A stretch of DNA of 64,000 nucleotides from Pelagomonas calceolata. Its lineage: Eukaryota; Sar; Pelagophyceae; Pelagomonadales; Pelagomonadaceae. Below, piece by piece: positions 6,177 through 32,006 of the stretch. Both the position numbers and the translations under genes were made by a program. The notes below the pieces were generated by a model. It made no database searches and was not told where the DNA came from. It saw only the letters and a program-made list of their open reading frames with translations. The DNA is taken from assembly GCA_918797485.1 (NCBI GenBank), contig CAKKNE010000005.1:2666001-2730000 (forward strand), read 5' to 3'. Positions within the stretch are counted from its first letter, which is position 1. Each line of letters starts with the position of its first letter.

Positions 6177-9100
6177 ATGGTGCAGTTCGGCAAGCGCTTC
6201 GAGACGTCGCAAACCAGACGCTGGTTGCGGCACAACGCGGACTACGAACGACTGAAACTCTTACTGAACTTGGCCGGCGCGGCGCGAGAGCGCGAGCCGG
6301 CCGAGAAGACCATTGGATTGAACAACTTCGGGGATAGAGATAATGCTGGTCTCCTAGAATCCGACGTGGTCCTAGCGCCGGGCGTCTTCGATTCGGGCCT
6401 AGAGGCCCTGGAAAAGCAAGCTCTGGAAACGCTCTGGCGGAAGAACCGCAAGCGCGGCCCTTTGGCAAAATCCACTTCATTAAGCAACATGGAGCGCTTC
6501 GCCTTCGCGAGCCCCGGCTCGCCCACGAGTGACGCCGACGACGACGCGTGGCACTGGACGCGGTGGTTGTTTTCGTCTCGATTACCTAGATCTTATGCTC
6601 TACTCGCGCATGGTTTCGACGTCGCGTTAGTTGCTGAATTAGACAAGGTCGACGCTTTGTATGCGCGAGAATTACGCGTACTGAAGAGTAGGTGGCAAGA
6701 TGCGTTACAAGATGATTTTGAAGAAGCGATAGACACGGAAGATGAAGGTTCATCAATAGCCACGGAAAAGTCGAAATTAAGACAAAAAACATCCACACTT
6801 AGTAGCGCCTATTCCGCGCTGGACGTCGAGGATCAACGGACGCCGCACGCGTCGCCCCGTCGAAGAAAACGTTCACTAGATGTGGCCGACGCGGCTACAA
6901 GAGCTTCTCTGAAACGATCGTTGGCGCAACTCGACGCCGATGCTCGAGAACTCATCGATTTCACGGTCTGGAACTTTACCGCGTTTACTAAGATAACTAA
7001 AAAAAGGGACAAGCGGTTGAAAAGGGAGCCCGCTATTAGGGAGCGATTTACGACTTTGGTCAAGAATCGGGATTGCTGTGCTGCTACTTCTGCAAGGAAG
7101 TTGATCAAGGACGTCCACCGGAGGTATGCGGACCTGTTTTGTGGCGGGAGTACTACCGAAGCGGAACTTGAGTTGCGGGAAGCGGCTCGAGCCGCAAATG
7201 AAAGCGCGCAATCGTTGTATGGAGGGCAGAACACGATCGCAACTTTAAGGTTTGGCTATCGGGCGGGCGTCGCCGCCACCCTAGCGGTCTGGGTCATGTG
7301 GGACTGTGTGGAGGTCGTGAACAGTGTGCACAAAAAAGTGAGTCATGATTCGGTAGCCGCGAAGGCCGCGTGGCCGTTGTTCCGAGCCTGTGGGGTATTA
7401 TTGGCGTGGCACTGGCTCTGGGGGTTGAGTCTGTGGGTCTGGAATAGATTTAGGGTGAACGCGCCGTTTCTGTTCGACGTGGTCGACACCTGAGTGGAAA
7501 TCAAATTTCGGGCGCCCCACGCCATCGACGCGACGTGCTTCCGTAGCTGCGTCTGCGCGATGGCGTGGCGATTCTACGCCATCGACGCGACGTTGTCCCC
7601 GTGGCCGCGTCGTATATCCTAACTCACTGGTTGATTTCCACACAGGTCGACACGGCGCAGACGCCGGCCGCCTCGCCCGCGGACGTCTTTGATGAATGTA
7701 TTTTGGAGACCAACGTCCTGTTATCGTTACTGCTATGCTACTACAAGAGTACCTACCGGGGCGGCATGCCGAAATTCATCGAAAAAGATGGGTACATCGC
7801 TACGACATTACCCCAAGCTCTACCTCTCATGCTAGTGCTCTTCCTCTTCAAGTGCTTGGTGCATCCTTGGAGTAGACGTAAACAACTCTGGTCCATCATC
7901 TCACGGGTGATACGGGCGCCGTTCTGCGAAGTGCGGTTCGTGGATACGTATGTCGCGGATGTACTGACAAGTATGGTCAAAGTTTTGCTGGATGCCTTAT
8001 GGTGCTGCTATTTTTTCTTGTCTGGCGCATTTTTACGATCGGAATCGGACAGGAAGAACCTCGACGAGTTGCAAAAGACGACCCATGCTTTTTGGTATAA
8101 ACAAGTACTGGCTCCAGCCGTATGTTTTTTTCCGATTTGGTTCCGGTTCGCCCAATGTTTACGGAAGTATGTGGATGTGGGCGACGGCCACAGAAGATGG
8201 GTCCATTTGTGGAACGCCGCCAAATATGCGTTTAGCTTGATTGTTACGATTACTACCGTGGTAAGAGGCACGGAGAAGTTCAAGTCGCGGTGGAGTATAC
8301 TGTTTTTCGGTTCTTCAATATTCTCATGGGTCTGGGACGTGCACGTCGACTGGGGGCTAAACTTCTGCAAGGTAGAGTCGTCGGAGGACACGTCGTTTCG
8401 GCGGCCGTCGTCCTTCGACGATGCGCCTCGGAAAAAGAGGTGGCATATCCTCTCGAGGCAGACGCGGATGTATCCGAAGGTGTGGTGGTACAGGGGTGCG
8501 GCCCTGTGTGGAAATCAACGAGTGCGTCGGGTGCTTCACTAAGTCATTGCTCGGCGATGATGCGGCCGAGCTGGCTCCGTCGAGCGGTGAGGAACCGACA
8601 CGGCCACGCCATCGAGCAGGCGTCGCGTTGATGGCGTGGAGGTCGACGCGGCGATTCAGGACGAACGCGCCGTAAATTTGATTCCCACACAGGTGCTGCT
8701 GTCCTAGATTTGTTCGGGCGGTTCGTCTGGTTAGCTACTGTGGTCCCTCCGAACGCGTTTGGTTCGCATTTGACGTCCTACATCCCCGACTATCTCACAC
8801 CAATCTTGGCGTTGGCGGAACTAGCTCGTAGATGCGTCTGGGGCTTCTTTCGGCTGGAGCACGAACATCTATCGAACGCGTTTCAGCATCGGAGGGAGGG
8901 GCAGTTCGTGCCGTCGCATCTGCGGACCTTACGGCCTCGGAAAGCGCCGAAACGCGTCTTGTCGGTCGTCGAGACGGGCTTCATTGCCGCTCTCGTCATT
9001 GCCCTCGTGTCGCGCATGACGATCCTCGCGCACGATTCGGACAAATTGGCGCACTTGAACGGGACGTCGCCCGTACACAGTGTGTACCCGGACACGAATA

Positions 9101-9270
9101 AATCGCTACCCATTGACGTCGACGACGACCTGACGGTGGCGCACCACCACCACCACCACACGCATAACGACGACGTTGCTGATGATGATGCCATTGACGA
9201 CGACGCGCCGAAGAAAGCTTCCGGTAAAAAGAAGAAGGAGGAGGACGTTGTGGACGACGACGATAAGTAG
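6177..9270 (+). CDS. SPX-EXS phosphate exporter/sensor (XPR1/PHO1 type), three exons
   Basis: Exons 6177-7481, 7646-8495 and 8693-9270 join in frame to 910 aa. The SPX domain starts at once (MVQFGKRFETSQ..RRWLRHNADYERLK) and runs to about residue 330. It has the Lys-rich RARDLK-like helix region where inositol pyrophosphates bind in this family. Hydrophobic helices follow, then the EXS domain: LDELQKTTHAFW, the signature WDVHVDWGL, RFVWLATVVPP (which spans the second splice junction) and ELARRCVWGFFRLEHEH. The C-terminus has a seven-His cluster and an acidic tail. The family exports phosphate across plasma or internal membranes under SPX control. Both introns are introners. The gene converges on the amidohydrolase with 25 bp between stop codons. 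Confidence 0.9.
7482..7645 (+). mobile_element. Introner in SPX-EXS, intron 1
   Basis: The intron is 164 nt. The 8-bp sequence GTCGACAC occurs at both splice junctions (7482-7489 and 7646-7653): the first copy supplies the GT donor and the second begins exon 2. Between them are imperfect terminal inverted repeats, CTGAGTGGAAATCAA at the left and TTGATTTCCACACAG at the right, the latter supplying the AG acceptor. Inside are two copies of CGCCATCGACGCGACG and one inverted GCGATGGCGTGG. Removing it restores ...FLFDV then VDTAQ in frame. Confidence 0.92.
8496..8692 (+). mobile_element. Introner in SPX-EXS, intron 2
   Basis: The intron is 197 nt. The flanking 8-mers GTGCGGCC (8496-8503) and GTGCTGCT (8693-8700) match at six of eight positions, so the target duplication is slightly aged. 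Terminal repeats are CTGTGTGGAAATCAA and TTTGATTCCCACACAG. The internal core reads CACGCCATCGAGCAGGCG, then TTGATGGCGTGGAG. Splicing restores the EXS stretch WWYRGAAVLDLFGRFVW. Confidence 0.92.
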
Positions 9271-29338: not shown

Positions 29339-31025
29339 ATGCGCCGGCCGACATGGACCGACCCTGACAAGGACAAGGAGTCGCAGGCGGCCGCCAGCGA
29401 CGACGCCTCGGACGACGACGGCATCGATCGCAATCCCTGCAAGTTCCCCGATCTACTGTTTGCTATCGCCTTCTCCGCGATGGTCGTTGCCATGATCTAC
29501 GCGGCCTTCTACTACCAGTATGCAGGGCGGGTAGATTTCGATGATTTGGCAAGCGAGGATGCCGCCGGAAATCTGTTCTCGTTGCTGATCGCGTGCTACG
29601 CGTCCGCGGCCGTCGTGAGCCAGCTCGTAGCGTCGATCGCGCTGCGGTCCGGAACTAGCGCACTGGACGTGCTGCTCGGCGCGTCCAACGCCCTCACGCT
29701 GGCGGGCTCGGTGCTCGCGTTTATCTTCGTCGGGCCTTGGACGGGCTGCGGTTTATTAGCAGTGTTCCTCGTGGGGGGCGCGTTCCAGGTGTTCGGCCGG
29801 AGCGATCGCTCGGAGTTTGCGGCGGCAACCGTGGCGGTCGGCTGCGACGCGGCCTTGGAATATCCCGAAATGGGCTGTGAGGCGGCCGTCGGCCTCGAGG
29901 GTGGCGCGTTTTTTCTGACGGTCGTGGCTACGCTGCTCTTCGGTACTTTTTCGGTGGCGGCCTTCGGCTACTACGCCTTCGAGGTCCAGAAGAGCGACGA
30001 CGATGATTGGGACACGGCGCTGTTCCTCGTCTGCCTCGCGTTCGCGGCGTGCTTCTTTTGGGCTTCTCAGGTGCTCAAGTATGTCATAACGGCCGCGACC
30101 GCGTCGACGGCGAACAGCTGGTGGTTCGGGAAGGACGTGGCGCCGCTTTCCGCGTTTTGTCGGGCCGTGACGTATCACTACGGCGCGATCTGCTTCGGGG
30201 CGTTAGTGGTCGCGCCGATCGAATCGATCGCGACGTCGATCAATTCGATGAAGCGAATGAGTGCGCGGGCCGAGAGCGGCGCGGTGAGCTCCGTACTCTC
30301 TGGTTGCTTGTGTTGCGTGACGACAGTCTTACAGTGCTGCGAAAGTATACTCGACTACTTTAACAAATTTGCGTTTGTGCTTCCCCGGCGTCCTCACGCC
30401 ACCTCCACGCCATCGACGCGACGCGTCCCACGCGCAGGTCCTCGTCGGCATGCGCGGCGCCTCATATGCGTACGCGAGCCGGCAGATCGTGGCGGTCTTT
30501 GGGAGTCAAGGATGTATTGCGGCTGGCGCCGACTTCTATTCAGAATCTGTGGTAGCCTTGTCGAGCATCAGCGTCGGCGCCGTCACGGCGGCCTTCGCCG
30601 TCGGACTGGGGGACGACAGTACGGAGCTGGAGGAAGGCATCTCCTCGACGTCGGCCGTCATCGCCGTCCTCGCGGGCGCCGGCGGCTACTGCGTCGCGGC
30701 GACGGCCTTCGCGATCGTCGAGGCCTGTGTGGAAATCAACCAGTGAGTAGGCTATCTTCGTCGACCTCCACGCCATCGAGCAGATGCAGTTCCGGGGACA
30801 CCGTCGCGTCGATGGCGTGGGGCGCCTGAAATTTGATCCACACAGGTCGAGGCCGCGGGAAAGGCCGCGCTCGTCTTATACCTCGAGGACCCCAACGCTC
30901 TAAAGCGCACGCATGAAAGCGACTTCGACCGGCTCTCAGGCGTCTGGCACCTCCTCGGCAAGGAGGTCGCGACCGTGCCCGAGGAGTACGAGCCGCTCCA
31001 GGCGCCCAACGACGGGTTCACGTAA
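29339..31025 (+). CDS. SLC44 / choline-transporter-like membrane protein, three exons
   Basis: Exons 29339-30376, 30438-30716 and 30846-31025 give 498 aa. A short acidic cytosolic N-terminus is followed by about ten hydrophobic helices (for example FAIAFSAMVVAMIYAAFYYQ and LFGTFSVAAFGYYAF). The family signature appears late: VTYHYGAICFGALVVAPIES, a Cys-rich SGCLCCVTTVLQCCESILDY, then FNKFAF joined across the first intron to VLVGMRGASYAYASRQIVAVF. CTL proteins carry choline or related cations, or act in lipid metabolism. Intron 1 was placed by phase and by this conserved junction. Intron 2 is a perfect introner. It converges on the Tudor/SH3-like gene, with stop codons 22 bp apart. Confidence 0.85.
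30377..30437 (+). mobile_element. Short introner-core intron in SLC44, intron 1
   Basis: A 61-nt intron from GTGCTTCC to CGCGCAG. It holds CCTCCACGCCATCGACGCGACG, the introner core, but lacks the CTGTGTGG terminal repeats. GTCCTC occurs in the intron (30390) and again at the start of exon 2 (30438). This may be the trace of a target duplication with a shifted donor. Confidence 0.6.
30717..30845 (+). mobile_element. Introner in SLC44, intron 2
   Basis: A 129-nt intron with a perfect 8-bp duplication GTCGAGGC at both junctions (30717-30724 and 30846-30853). Terminal repeats are CTGTGTGGAAATCAA and TTTGATCCACACAG, the latter one base short. The internal core is an inverted pair, CCTCCACGCCATCGAGCAG and GTCGCGTCGATGGCGTGG. 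The spliced frame is continuous (AFAIVEAAGKAALVLY). Confidence 0.93.
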
Positions 31026-31047: not shown

Positions 31048-32006
31048 TCAGTAGTCGCCCTCGTCGGCGTTGGGGTCAGCGCAGGCGCGGACTTTCAACG
31101 TTTCGTGGTCGACCTTCTCCCAGGAGCCGTCTTTCTTCTGCCTCGTTACGAACTTGTCGAGGACGCGCGTCGCGCCGGTGCGCGGGCCCGGGGCCTGGAG
31201 GTCGCGCGAGCGGATGAAGCGGTGCTCCTCCCGATGCACGAGGACCGACCTCCCACCGGTGTCGTCGAGCCGGACGCGGTACGGCATCTTCGACGCGGCG
31301 CCGACATCAACATCCACCTGTACGACCTCACCGGCGGCCCAGTCCGTGTGGACATCTTCAGGGTCCTCCACCGCAACGCACACCTTATCGCCGACGGCGA
31401 AGCGCCGCTTCTTCGTGGGGTTGAGAGGTAGGCACCTGTGTGGAAATCAATGCCATCGAGCAGGCGTCGCGTAAATTTGATTGCCACACGGGTAAGGCAC
31501 GCGATCGAGAACTGCGCCCCGCCCGGCACGTCGCCGTCGAAGCAGATTTCGCTTCTACAAAAGTTCTTCCGGTCTTCCGGCACCGATATCAACTTGCCCA
31601 GTGGCGGGTCGAGCTTGACGACGTACGGAAAGAGTTCGGTAGGATCCTGCGGGTTCGGCTCATTCACACTTTGGACGGCGCCCGGCAGCCACCCGAAGCC
31701 GCCTCCGAGCGAGCACACGACCCTGTCTGATCTTTGAAACCGTCTGGGGGGGGGCGGCGGCCGCGGCGGCAGGTAGCTATACCCGGGCGGCAGCTCCCGC
31801 TGGTCGTTCAATCTCGATAAATCCGCGAGGTCCCTCTCGAGCTGTTCCCGCGAATCATAGCCCGGCGGCAGCTCGCCCGTCTCCTTCCACCGCTCGAGAT
31901 CGTCCAAGTCCCGCTCGAGCTGCTCGCGCTCGGGGTCTCGTCTCGGCGGGTCGGCGTCGGAGTCGTCCCGGCTGCGGCTGCGGCTGCGCTGGGGTTGGCT
32001 GGCCAT
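31048..32006 (-). CDS. Protein with two Tudor/SH3-like modules, two exons
   Basis: Exon 1 is 31501-32006 and exon 2 is 31048-31435, 297 aa. The N-terminus is RS-rich (SQPQRSRSRSRDD). Two near-repeats follow (REQLERDLADLSRL and EREQLERDLDDLERW, each leading to ELPPGY). Two related beta modules come next: FQRSDRVVCSLGGGFGWLPG, then PYVVKLDPP; and FAVGDKVCVAVED, then DWAAGEVVQVDV and PYRVRLDDTG. The first ends in SIACLPLNP, which spans the splice junction. The pattern GDxV, W, G-x-V, P-Y-x-V-x-L is typical of small SH3/Tudor-like barrels. The RS-rich start hints at a role in RNA processing. Intron is a miniature introner. Confidence 0.75.
31436..31500 (-). mobile_element. Miniature introner (65 nt) in the Tudor/SH3-like gene
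   Basis: On the coding (minus) strand GTGCCTTA lies at the 5' junction and GTGCCTAC at the start of exon 2, six of eight identical. Between them are terminal repeats CCGTGTGGCAATCAAATTT and ATTGATTTCCACACAG around a single half-core, CGCGACGCCTGCTCGATGGC. It is the shortest copy in the window and shows how little the element needs. Confidence 0.9.

What the first reader, a model, noticed from the sequence alone, without database searches (positions are those of the whole stretch)
7482..7645. Active-looking introner family: TIR element makes introns with one acceptor supplied by the element and one donor by the target duplication
Four introns in the window (7482-7645, 8496-8692, 30717-30845, 31436-31500) share terminal inverted repeats related to CTGTGTGGAAATCAA, an internal CCATCGA(C/G) core and 8-bp flanking duplications. 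Each duplication begins with GT (GTCGACAC, GTGCGGCC, GTCGAGGC, GTGCCTTA). So the first copy becomes the 5' splice site and the element end CCACACAG becomes the 3' splice site, leaving the second copy in the exon and the reading frame unchanged. Because both ends are the same inverted repeat, insertion in either orientation gives an acceptor. Introners with 8-bp duplications and this mechanism are established for Aureococcus. What is new here is this particular family with its size range (65-197 nt) and the strict GT start of targets.
Basis: partly seen in the sequence, partly recalled or inferred. Interest (0 to 1): 0.85.

Follow-up and report, generated by a model that had tools for sequence, protein, structure and literature searches.

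The report
Transposon that makes splice-ready introns
A small cut-and-paste DNA element has spread to over a thousand places in a tiny marine alga, mostly inside genes, and its copies look like introns that can be spliced out cleanly because the element brings one splice site and the duplicated target supplies the other; this way of making introns is already known from related algae.

Summary
The window fits the pelagophyte alga Pelagomonas calceolata. The 15-bp terminal repeat occurs 2,516 times genome-wide at ≤1 mismatch (reversed-pattern control: 2). Of 99 exact left ends examined, 90 had a partner and 79 had 8-bp duplications with ≤2 mismatches. In the 69 of these that were clearly coding, the intron-side copy always begins GT or GC on the coding strand. 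In 47 of 47 testable copies excision restores the frame.

'Strict GT' is wrong: 15 of 69 use GC. Per available site GT is used about 8 times more, and GC donors are enriched for G at +5. Ends whose acceptor AG is destroyed lie almost only on the donor side: 95 of 100 listed begin GY, against 987 of 1,562 intact ends, which is genomic evidence that splicing is what is kept. The interior lies in either orientation (40 of 72 the same way).

I found no copy with an intact duplication at a site lacking GY. Uniform insertion plus selection does not readily explain that. No RNA, second strain or transposase was available. It is a new member of a known kind, the introners.

The parts
7482..7645 (+). 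Introner intron 1: intron-side target copy GTCGACAC (7482-7489), element 7490-7645; exon copy 7646-7653
   Evidence: spliced gene model; EXS domain spans the junction
8496..8692 (+). Introner intron 2: target copy GTGCGGCC (8496-8503), element 8504-8692 (derivative of the 203-bp type, 86.7% to consensus); exon copy GTGCTGCT 8693-8700
   Evidence: EXS domain spans the junction
30717..30845 (+). Introner intron 3: target copy GTCGAGGC (30717-30724), element 30725-30845; exon copy 30846-30853
   Evidence: spliced choline-transporter model
31436..31500 (-). Introner intron 4 (65 nt, minus strand): donor-side copy GTGCCTTAC 31492-31500, element 31436-31491, exon copy GTGCCTAC 31428-31435; the donor-side repeat has lost its AG (CCGTGTGG)
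   Evidence: frame restored on splicing
30377..30437 (+). Fifth, older relative: 61-nt intron carrying the CCACGCCATCGACGCGACG core with decayed terminal repeats and duplication (GTGCTTCC / GTCCTCGT)
   Evidence: BLAST of the consensus, sequence; removing it restores the frame and gives a 498-aa protein with a near full-length choline transporter domain
6177..9270 (+). Host gene of introns 1 and 2: EXS-family protein, 910 aa when spliced
   Evidence: PF03124, E 2.5e-63, residues 399-778; junctions at codons 435 and 718
29339..31025 (+). Host gene of introns 3 and 5: choline-transporter-like protein, 498 aa when spliced
   Evidence: PF04515, E 1e-38, residues 141-455; junctions at about codons 346 and 439
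31048..32006 (-). Host gene of intron 4, 297-aa protein when spliced, no Pfam match

Best explanation
These introns are copies of a short, non-autonomous cut-and-paste DNA transposon (an introner) with 15-bp inverted ends. On insertion it duplicates 8 bp of target. Each element end, read outwards, finishes TTGATTTCCACACAG, a ready 3' splice site, and because both ends are the same inverted repeat an acceptor is present in either orientation. The 5' splice site is the first two bases of the upstream target copy, which must be GT or GC on the transcribed strand. Splicing from there to the element end leaves one target copy, so the mRNA is unchanged. Insertions without GY on the sense strand are nearly absent from coding sequence, presumably purged by selection. 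After insertion the donor GY and the acceptor-side AG are kept, while the AG of the donor-side end is free to decay. Shown by sequence: ends, duplications, sense-strand GY, frame restoration, both orientations, one-sided AG loss. Inferred: actual splicing of each copy, the branch point (TTGAT in the repeat is a guess), the transposase, and purging as the cause of the GY rule.
For: TSD: 44 of 90 paired copies identical and 79 of 90 with <=2 mismatches; random pairing gives 0.05% identical. Sense-strand GY: 69 of 69 clear coding copies, with the strand called from flanks with the duplication masked; background GY 17%. A second set, the 20 best matches to the consensus outside contig C1: 20 of 20 GY on the called strand, 19 of them clear, 19 with a direct duplication. 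Frame: 47 of 47 flank pairs on the same strand with shift 0 after excision; 44 of 47 would break if unspliced. Protein domains run across the junctions of two of the three host genes in the window. AG loss: 95 of 100 listed ends (of 118) with destroyed AG begin GY, against 987 of 1,562 intact ends, Fisher 4e-13. Intron phase follows the availability of GT by codon position (22/10/22 observed, expected fractions 0.44/0.15/0.41). Orientation relative to sense 40 of 72. GC donors enriched for G at +5 (29 of 48 against 32% background); two U1-like loci keep ATACTTACCTG.
Against: No RNA reads were available, so splicing is inferred from genomic pattern. One of 79 (L047) begins TG on the nominally better strand, with weak strand support, and GT on the other. 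Nine of 99 left ends had no right end under the criteria used, and 11 of 90 pairs had more than 2 TSD mismatches. Among 21 of the 31 worst rule-breaking ends genome-wide, 11 would put the donor at a non-GY flank on the better-scoring strand; 4 of these (L099, L109, L110, L114) are clearly coding by the same cut-offs, so exceptions to the sense-GY rule exist, though only L099 of the four has a duplication with <=2 mismatches. Five of 100 AG-lost ends do not begin GY. No transposase could be linked.
Confidence: 0.93

Rival explanations
1. RNA-based propagation: the excised intron reverse-splices into other mRNAs and returns to DNA by reverse transcription.
For: Copies are nearly confined to splice-able sense-strand positions, as such a route would give.
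Against: The first 8 nt of each intron match the exon behind that same intron (44 of 90 exactly), not the source intron; inverted 15-bp ends; interiors lie in both orientations relative to the gene (40 of 72), which reverse splicing of one RNA strand would not give.
Confidence: 0.03
2. The GY rule is a target preference of the transposase and not a splicing filter.
For: The antisense end of the duplication also shows GY more than background: 20 of 69 against 18% (p 0.03) and about 27% genome-wide by (987+1002)/1562-1, which assumes that all copies obey the rule. So a mild symmetric G-Y-N4-R-C preference may exist.
Against: The sense strand is 69 of 69 while the antisense strand is 20 of 69. 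A DNA transposase blind to transcription cannot make that asymmetry. One-sided AG loss also points to splicing selection.
Confidence: 0.04
3. Ordinary inverted-repeat elements scattered at random, with the intron reading imposed by the reader.
For: Fold-back elements with 8-bp duplications are common in eukaryotes (general knowledge).
Against: 0 of 79 copies with a duplication lack GY on both strands, against about 70% expected at random window positions; frame restoration 47 of 47.
Confidence: 0.01

Closest known systems
Introner elements of Aureococcus anophagefferens (Huff, Zilberman and Roy 2016; recalled, paper not held)
   Same: Recalled abstract: short non-autonomous DNA transposons in a pelagophyte; one splice site carried, the other co-opted from the duplicated target; perfect removal; phase bias follows co-optable sequence. 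The P. calceolata genome paper links its ~210-bp intron length peak to these (PMC9481584, passages).
   Different: Whether the terminal repeat is homologous was not tested (no Aureococcus genome in the collections I searched).
Symbiodinium microadriaticum introners (PMC9860276, Fig. 2B legend)
   Same: Inverted ends; element carries the 3' site and the 5' site comes from the target duplication.
   Different: 4-bp duplications there, 8-bp here.
Aureococcus sp. family 4 introners (PMC9860276, Fig. 2F legend)
   Same: 8-bp target duplication, pelagophyte host.
   Different: That family carries both splice sites and adds 12 nt to the mRNA; this one adds nothing.
GC-AG introns of A. anophagefferens and Micromonas pusilla (PMC3033335, passages)
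   Same: High GC-AG share (39.6% and 22.2% of introns), with canonical U1 5' end AUACUUACCUG; here 15 of 69 (22%) in the broad sample and canonical U1-like loci.
   Different: That paper calls the origin of its GC-AG introns an enigma; here the GC donors lie in the target copy of an inserted element.

Membership tests
Introner (intron-generating transposable element) | Many similar introns at unrelated positions in the genome | tested here: met
   1,562 exact ends; 906 first-look candidates for the 203-bp consensus, of which 40 were scored; 66 of 90 sampled copies derive from that consensus
Introner (intron-generating transposable element) | Insertion creates an intron with splice sites from element and/or target | tested here: met
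   Sense GY 69/69, frame 47/47, AG-loss asymmetry; genomic evidence only
Introner (intron-generating transposable element) | Copies are spliced in RNA | not testable with these tools
   No RNA-seq available
Introner (intron-generating transposable element) | Presence/absence against an ortholog or strain lacking the copy | not tested
   No second strain held; empty sites only joined in scripts
MITE-like non-autonomous TIR transposon | Short, inverted ends, fixed-length target duplication | tested here: met
   56-206 bp, 15-bp ends, 8-bp duplications
MITE-like non-autonomous TIR transposon | Autonomous partner with the same ends | tested here: inconclusive
   hAT-dimerisation ORF on C4 has no such ends in the 8.5 kb fetched; MULE none; KDZ and P-type searches silent in controls too
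hAT superfamily | 8-bp duplication | tested here: met
hAT superfamily | hAT-type transposase linked to these ends | tested here: inconclusive
   Only one hAT-dimerisation match, unlinked; the superfamily's terminal motif (recalled as YARNG) does not fit CTGTG
Aureococcus anophagefferens introner family | Homologous terminal repeat | not tested
   No Aureococcus genome in the collections searched

The most novel reading that the evidence does not exclude
The family is confined to splice-able positions more tightly than selection after random insertion should give: I found no copy with an intact duplication at a site lacking GY, although about a quarter of random window positions are not clearly coding and a non-coding copy should be nearly harmless. 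Insertion may therefore be steered to exons of transcribed genes, or mobility itself may depend on the copy being transcribed and spliced, so that being an intron is part of the element's life cycle and not only a disguise.
Probability: 0.15. Interest if true: 0.75.

Novelty: new member of a known kind. Interest (0 to 1): 0.45.

Why it matters
It gives a large natural splicing experiment: over a thousand related copies, most of those sampled sharing one interior, with different donor sides. From the genome alone one can read that GY is nearly always required, that GT is used about 8 times more than GC per site, that GC goes with G at +5, and that the acceptor AG is needed at one end only. It also offers a simple source for the unexplained abundance of GC-AG introns reported in other picoalgae (PMC3033335, passages).

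Tried and rejected
Mobilising transposase: family searches for hAT-dimerisation (one 721-aa open frame on C4, no matching ends in the 8.5 kb fetched), KDZ (none, controls silent), MULE (none, 3 of 14 controls rang) and P-type RNase H (none, controls silent). No partner was identified; other superfamilies were not searched, and ends 1-10 kb apart could not be paired genome-wide.

Viral carriage: an exact 15-mer scan of viral contigs gave 43 stretches. Two have a loose inverted partner (4 mismatches) but with 4 and 5 mismatches in the flanks; none has a matching duplication. This does not exclude diverged viral copies.

AT donors: many of the 31 rule-breaking ends have flanks ending AT, which suggested AT-AG donors. 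I fetched 20 stretches holding 21 of them. Of the 21, 17 have more than 2 mismatches between the two flanks, one has no right end within 1,200 bp and three match with ≤2 mismatches; in 8 the flank on the other side gives a GY donor on the called strand. Dropped.

GC-to-GT conversion with age: GC is commoner among the youngest (9 of 19 against 15 of 69, p 0.04), among full-length copies (9 of 23 against 6 of 46, p 0.03) and among less diverged copies in the pooled 88 (p 0.04). But divergence in the broad sample alone does not separate them (p 0.15), TSD identity does not either (p 0.57), and it is 24 of 95 among copies that have lost an AG. Left open.

Branch point: TTGAT in the repeat looked like the only shared candidate, but one of 33 acceptor-side ends has that A changed. 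Not settled.

In the sample alone, AG loss by side was only suggestive (0 of 33 against 5 of 42, p 0.06), which is why the genome-wide test was made.

A first orientation count (42 of 78) also took copies whose interior is unrelated to the consensus; it was replaced by a count of consensus-derived copies only (40 of 72).

Full report
WHERE IT IS. The window is G000:C5:2666001-2730000 of an assembly of 32,445,274 bases in 8 contigs. This fits Pelagomonas calceolata RCC100 (six nuclear contigs of 32.4 Mb plus plastid and mitochondrion; PMC9481584, passages read). The identification is an inference from size and contig number. [quoted passage not shown] its Supplementary Note 3 on this could not be read.

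OBSERVATION. The four introns are as described, with two corrections: the duplication of 8496-8692 matches at 6 of 8, and that of 31436-31500 carries a one-base insertion (GTGCCTTAC against GTGCCTAC). Spliced gene models are coherent: an EXS-family protein of 910 aa whose domain runs over both junctions, a choline-transporter-like protein of 498 aa, and a 297-aa protein on the minus strand without a Pfam match. The choline-transporter gene needs a further 61-nt intron at 30377-30437, which carries the family's CCACGCCATCGACGCGACG core but has lost recognisable ends.

GENOME-WIDE FAMILY. The 15-bp end occurs 1,261 + 1,255 times at ≤1 mismatch (reversed control 2 + 0), so at two ends each there are over 1,200 copies, some of them in duplicated chromosome ends. 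Exact ends number 1,562 (control 0). I fetched loci for 99 of the first 100 exact left ends listed, all on contig C1. Of 99, 90 had a right end under the criteria used (≤4 mismatches, within 780 bp) and 9 did not; on reading, several of the 9 show diverged or indel-bearing right ends. Of the 90 pairs, TSD mismatches were 0 in 44, 1 in 24, 2 in 11 and more in 11; random pairing gives 0.05% for identity. Element lengths run from 56 to 206 bp with a mode at 203. In 66 of 90 at least 60% of the interior derives from one 203-bp consensus; 18 of the other 24 form one further cluster, and 83 of 90 carry the CCATCGA core. The 27 copies of 195-210 bp differ from their consensus by 5.2% on average (2.9-8.7%). 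A search of the genome with the consensus gave 906 first-look candidates, of which 40 were scored, best 99%. So the family is young, but present activity is not shown.

DONOR RULE. The coding strand was called from codon use in the flanks with the duplication masked. Of the 79 copies with ≤2 TSD mismatches, 69 were clearly coding: on the sense strand 54 begin GT and 15 GC, none otherwise (background GT 5%, GC 12%). Of the 10 unclear ones, 9 begin GY on the better-scoring strand and the tenth (L047) on the other. A second set, the 20 best matches to the consensus outside C1, gives 20 of 20 GY on the better strand (11 GT, 9 GC; 19 clear; one of the 20, L161, has inverted rather than direct target copies). 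Per available dinucleotide in the same exons, GT is used 8.2 times more than GC (54 per 1,670 against 15 per 3,807). In 174 pooled donors (88 clear ones from the two samples, and 86 taken to be donors because they begin GY, after removing duplicates and loci already sampled) GC donors have G at +5 in 29 of 48 (background 32%, p 6e-5) and GT donors in 46 of 126 (background 28%, p 0.04). Two U1-like loci, both below the Rfam cut-off, keep ATACTTACCTG.

SPLICING EVIDENCE FROM DNA. (i) Of 47 copies in which both flanks score as coding on their own, all 47 agree in strand and frame once the copy is removed; left in, 36 shift the frame, 8 add a stop and 3 stay open. (ii) Phases follow the supply of GT by codon position. 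(iii) If only the downstream end must act as acceptor, the AG of the upstream end should be free to decay. In the sample alone the same trend is not significant (0 of 33 against 5 of 42). Intron 31436-31500 in the window is such a case. (iv) Among clear coding copies whose interior derives from the consensus, 40 of 72 lie in the same orientation as the gene (p 0.41), as expected from inverted ends. One full-length intron RNA is predicted to fold with the two ends paired, -89.3 kcal/mol, z -3.1 (one copy only); whether this matters for splicing is unknown.

TARGET PREFERENCE AGAINST SELECTION. The antisense end of the duplication is GY in 20 of 69 (background 18%, p 0.03) and about 27% genome-wide if all copies obey the rule. 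So the transposase may mildly prefer G-Y-N4-R-C, but that cannot make the 69-of-69 sense bias, which points to loss of non-splice-able insertions. Yet selection alone has a difficulty. About 26% of random window positions are not called clearly coding (this includes coding stretches the score misses), and copies in non-coding DNA should persist without GY; 70% of random window sites lack GY on both strands. Instead 0 of 79 lack it. Genome-wide only 31 of 1,562 ends have neither G first nor C last in the flank, a class that should hold a little under half of random sites by base composition. I read 21 of these: 17 have flanks with more than 2 mismatches, one has no right end within 1,200 bp, and three match with ≤2 mismatches, none of which lacks GY in both copies (in L099 the exon copy begins GT and the donor copy TG; in L100 and L102 the other copy reads GY on the antisense). 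If absence of clean cases in 21 is representative, copies with intact duplications at sites without a donor are below about 1%; counting every rule-breaking end regardless of its duplication, my estimate is about 3%. Four of the 21 (L099, L109, L110, L114) are clearly coding with a non-GY flank where the donor should be, so the rule has exceptions among old or rearranged copies, which may use another donor. Either insertion is aimed at exons, or non-coding copies are also removed, or mobility depends on transcription. These were not separated.

COMPARISON. This works like, and by every feature tested to a result is, an introner. PMC9860276 (outline, sections 8-11 and 26, and passages read) describes families with the 3' site carried and the 5' site from the duplication (Symbiodinium, 4-bp), an 8-bp Aureococcus family that carries both sites, and enrichment in genes in 161 of 175 genomes. 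The Aureococcus anophagefferens mechanism of Huff et al. 2016 is recalled, not read. Two 2025 papers on horizontal transfer of introners are known from a reference list and from recall, and are not held. PMC3033335 (passages) reports GC-AG introns as 39.6% of A. anophagefferens and 22.2% of M. pusilla introns and calls their origin an enigma; co-option of GC from target duplications in GC-rich genes would account for them, if those introns too are introners. I do not claim this link is unpublished; the paper searches do not settle that.

LIMITS. No RNA, no second strain, no Aureococcus genome and no transposase. The broad sample comes from one contig and from copies with one perfect end. Strand calls rest on codon scores trained on 23 open reading frames of the window.

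Noticed in passing
30377-30437: An older 61-nt intron with the family's core but decayed ends, in the same gene as the intron at 30717-30845; removing it restores the choline-transporter frame.
   Followed up: yes
L096 3381-5543 (G000:C4, minus strand): A 721-aa open frame with a hAT-dimerisation match, the only one found, without this family's ends in the 8.5 kb fetched; perhaps a domesticated transposase.
   Followed up: partly
L161 601-803 (G000:C5:4041166): A young full-length copy flanked by inverted rather than direct target copies (GTTCTGGC and ACCAGAAC), yet still beginning GT on the coding strand; could be chance among the copies examined.
   Followed up: no
L180 1501 and L181 1501 (G000:C1:553941 and C1:5464782): Two divergent U1-like RNA loci, both with the canonical 5' end ATACTTACCTG, both below the Rfam cut-off.
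   Followed up: partly
L011, L064 and window 7490-7645: Elements or ends with the same terminal repeat but interiors unlike the 203-bp consensus, suggesting several interiors mobilised through one type of end.
   Followed up: partly
sample: Where the two target copies differ at base 2 (5 of 69), the intron-side copy is GT and the exon copy GC every time, never the reverse.
   Followed up: partly
whole genome: Ends with a destroyed AG are uneven between strands of the assembly (43 forward, 75 reverse, p 0.004), for which I have no explanation; intact ends are even (790 and 772).
   Followed up: no
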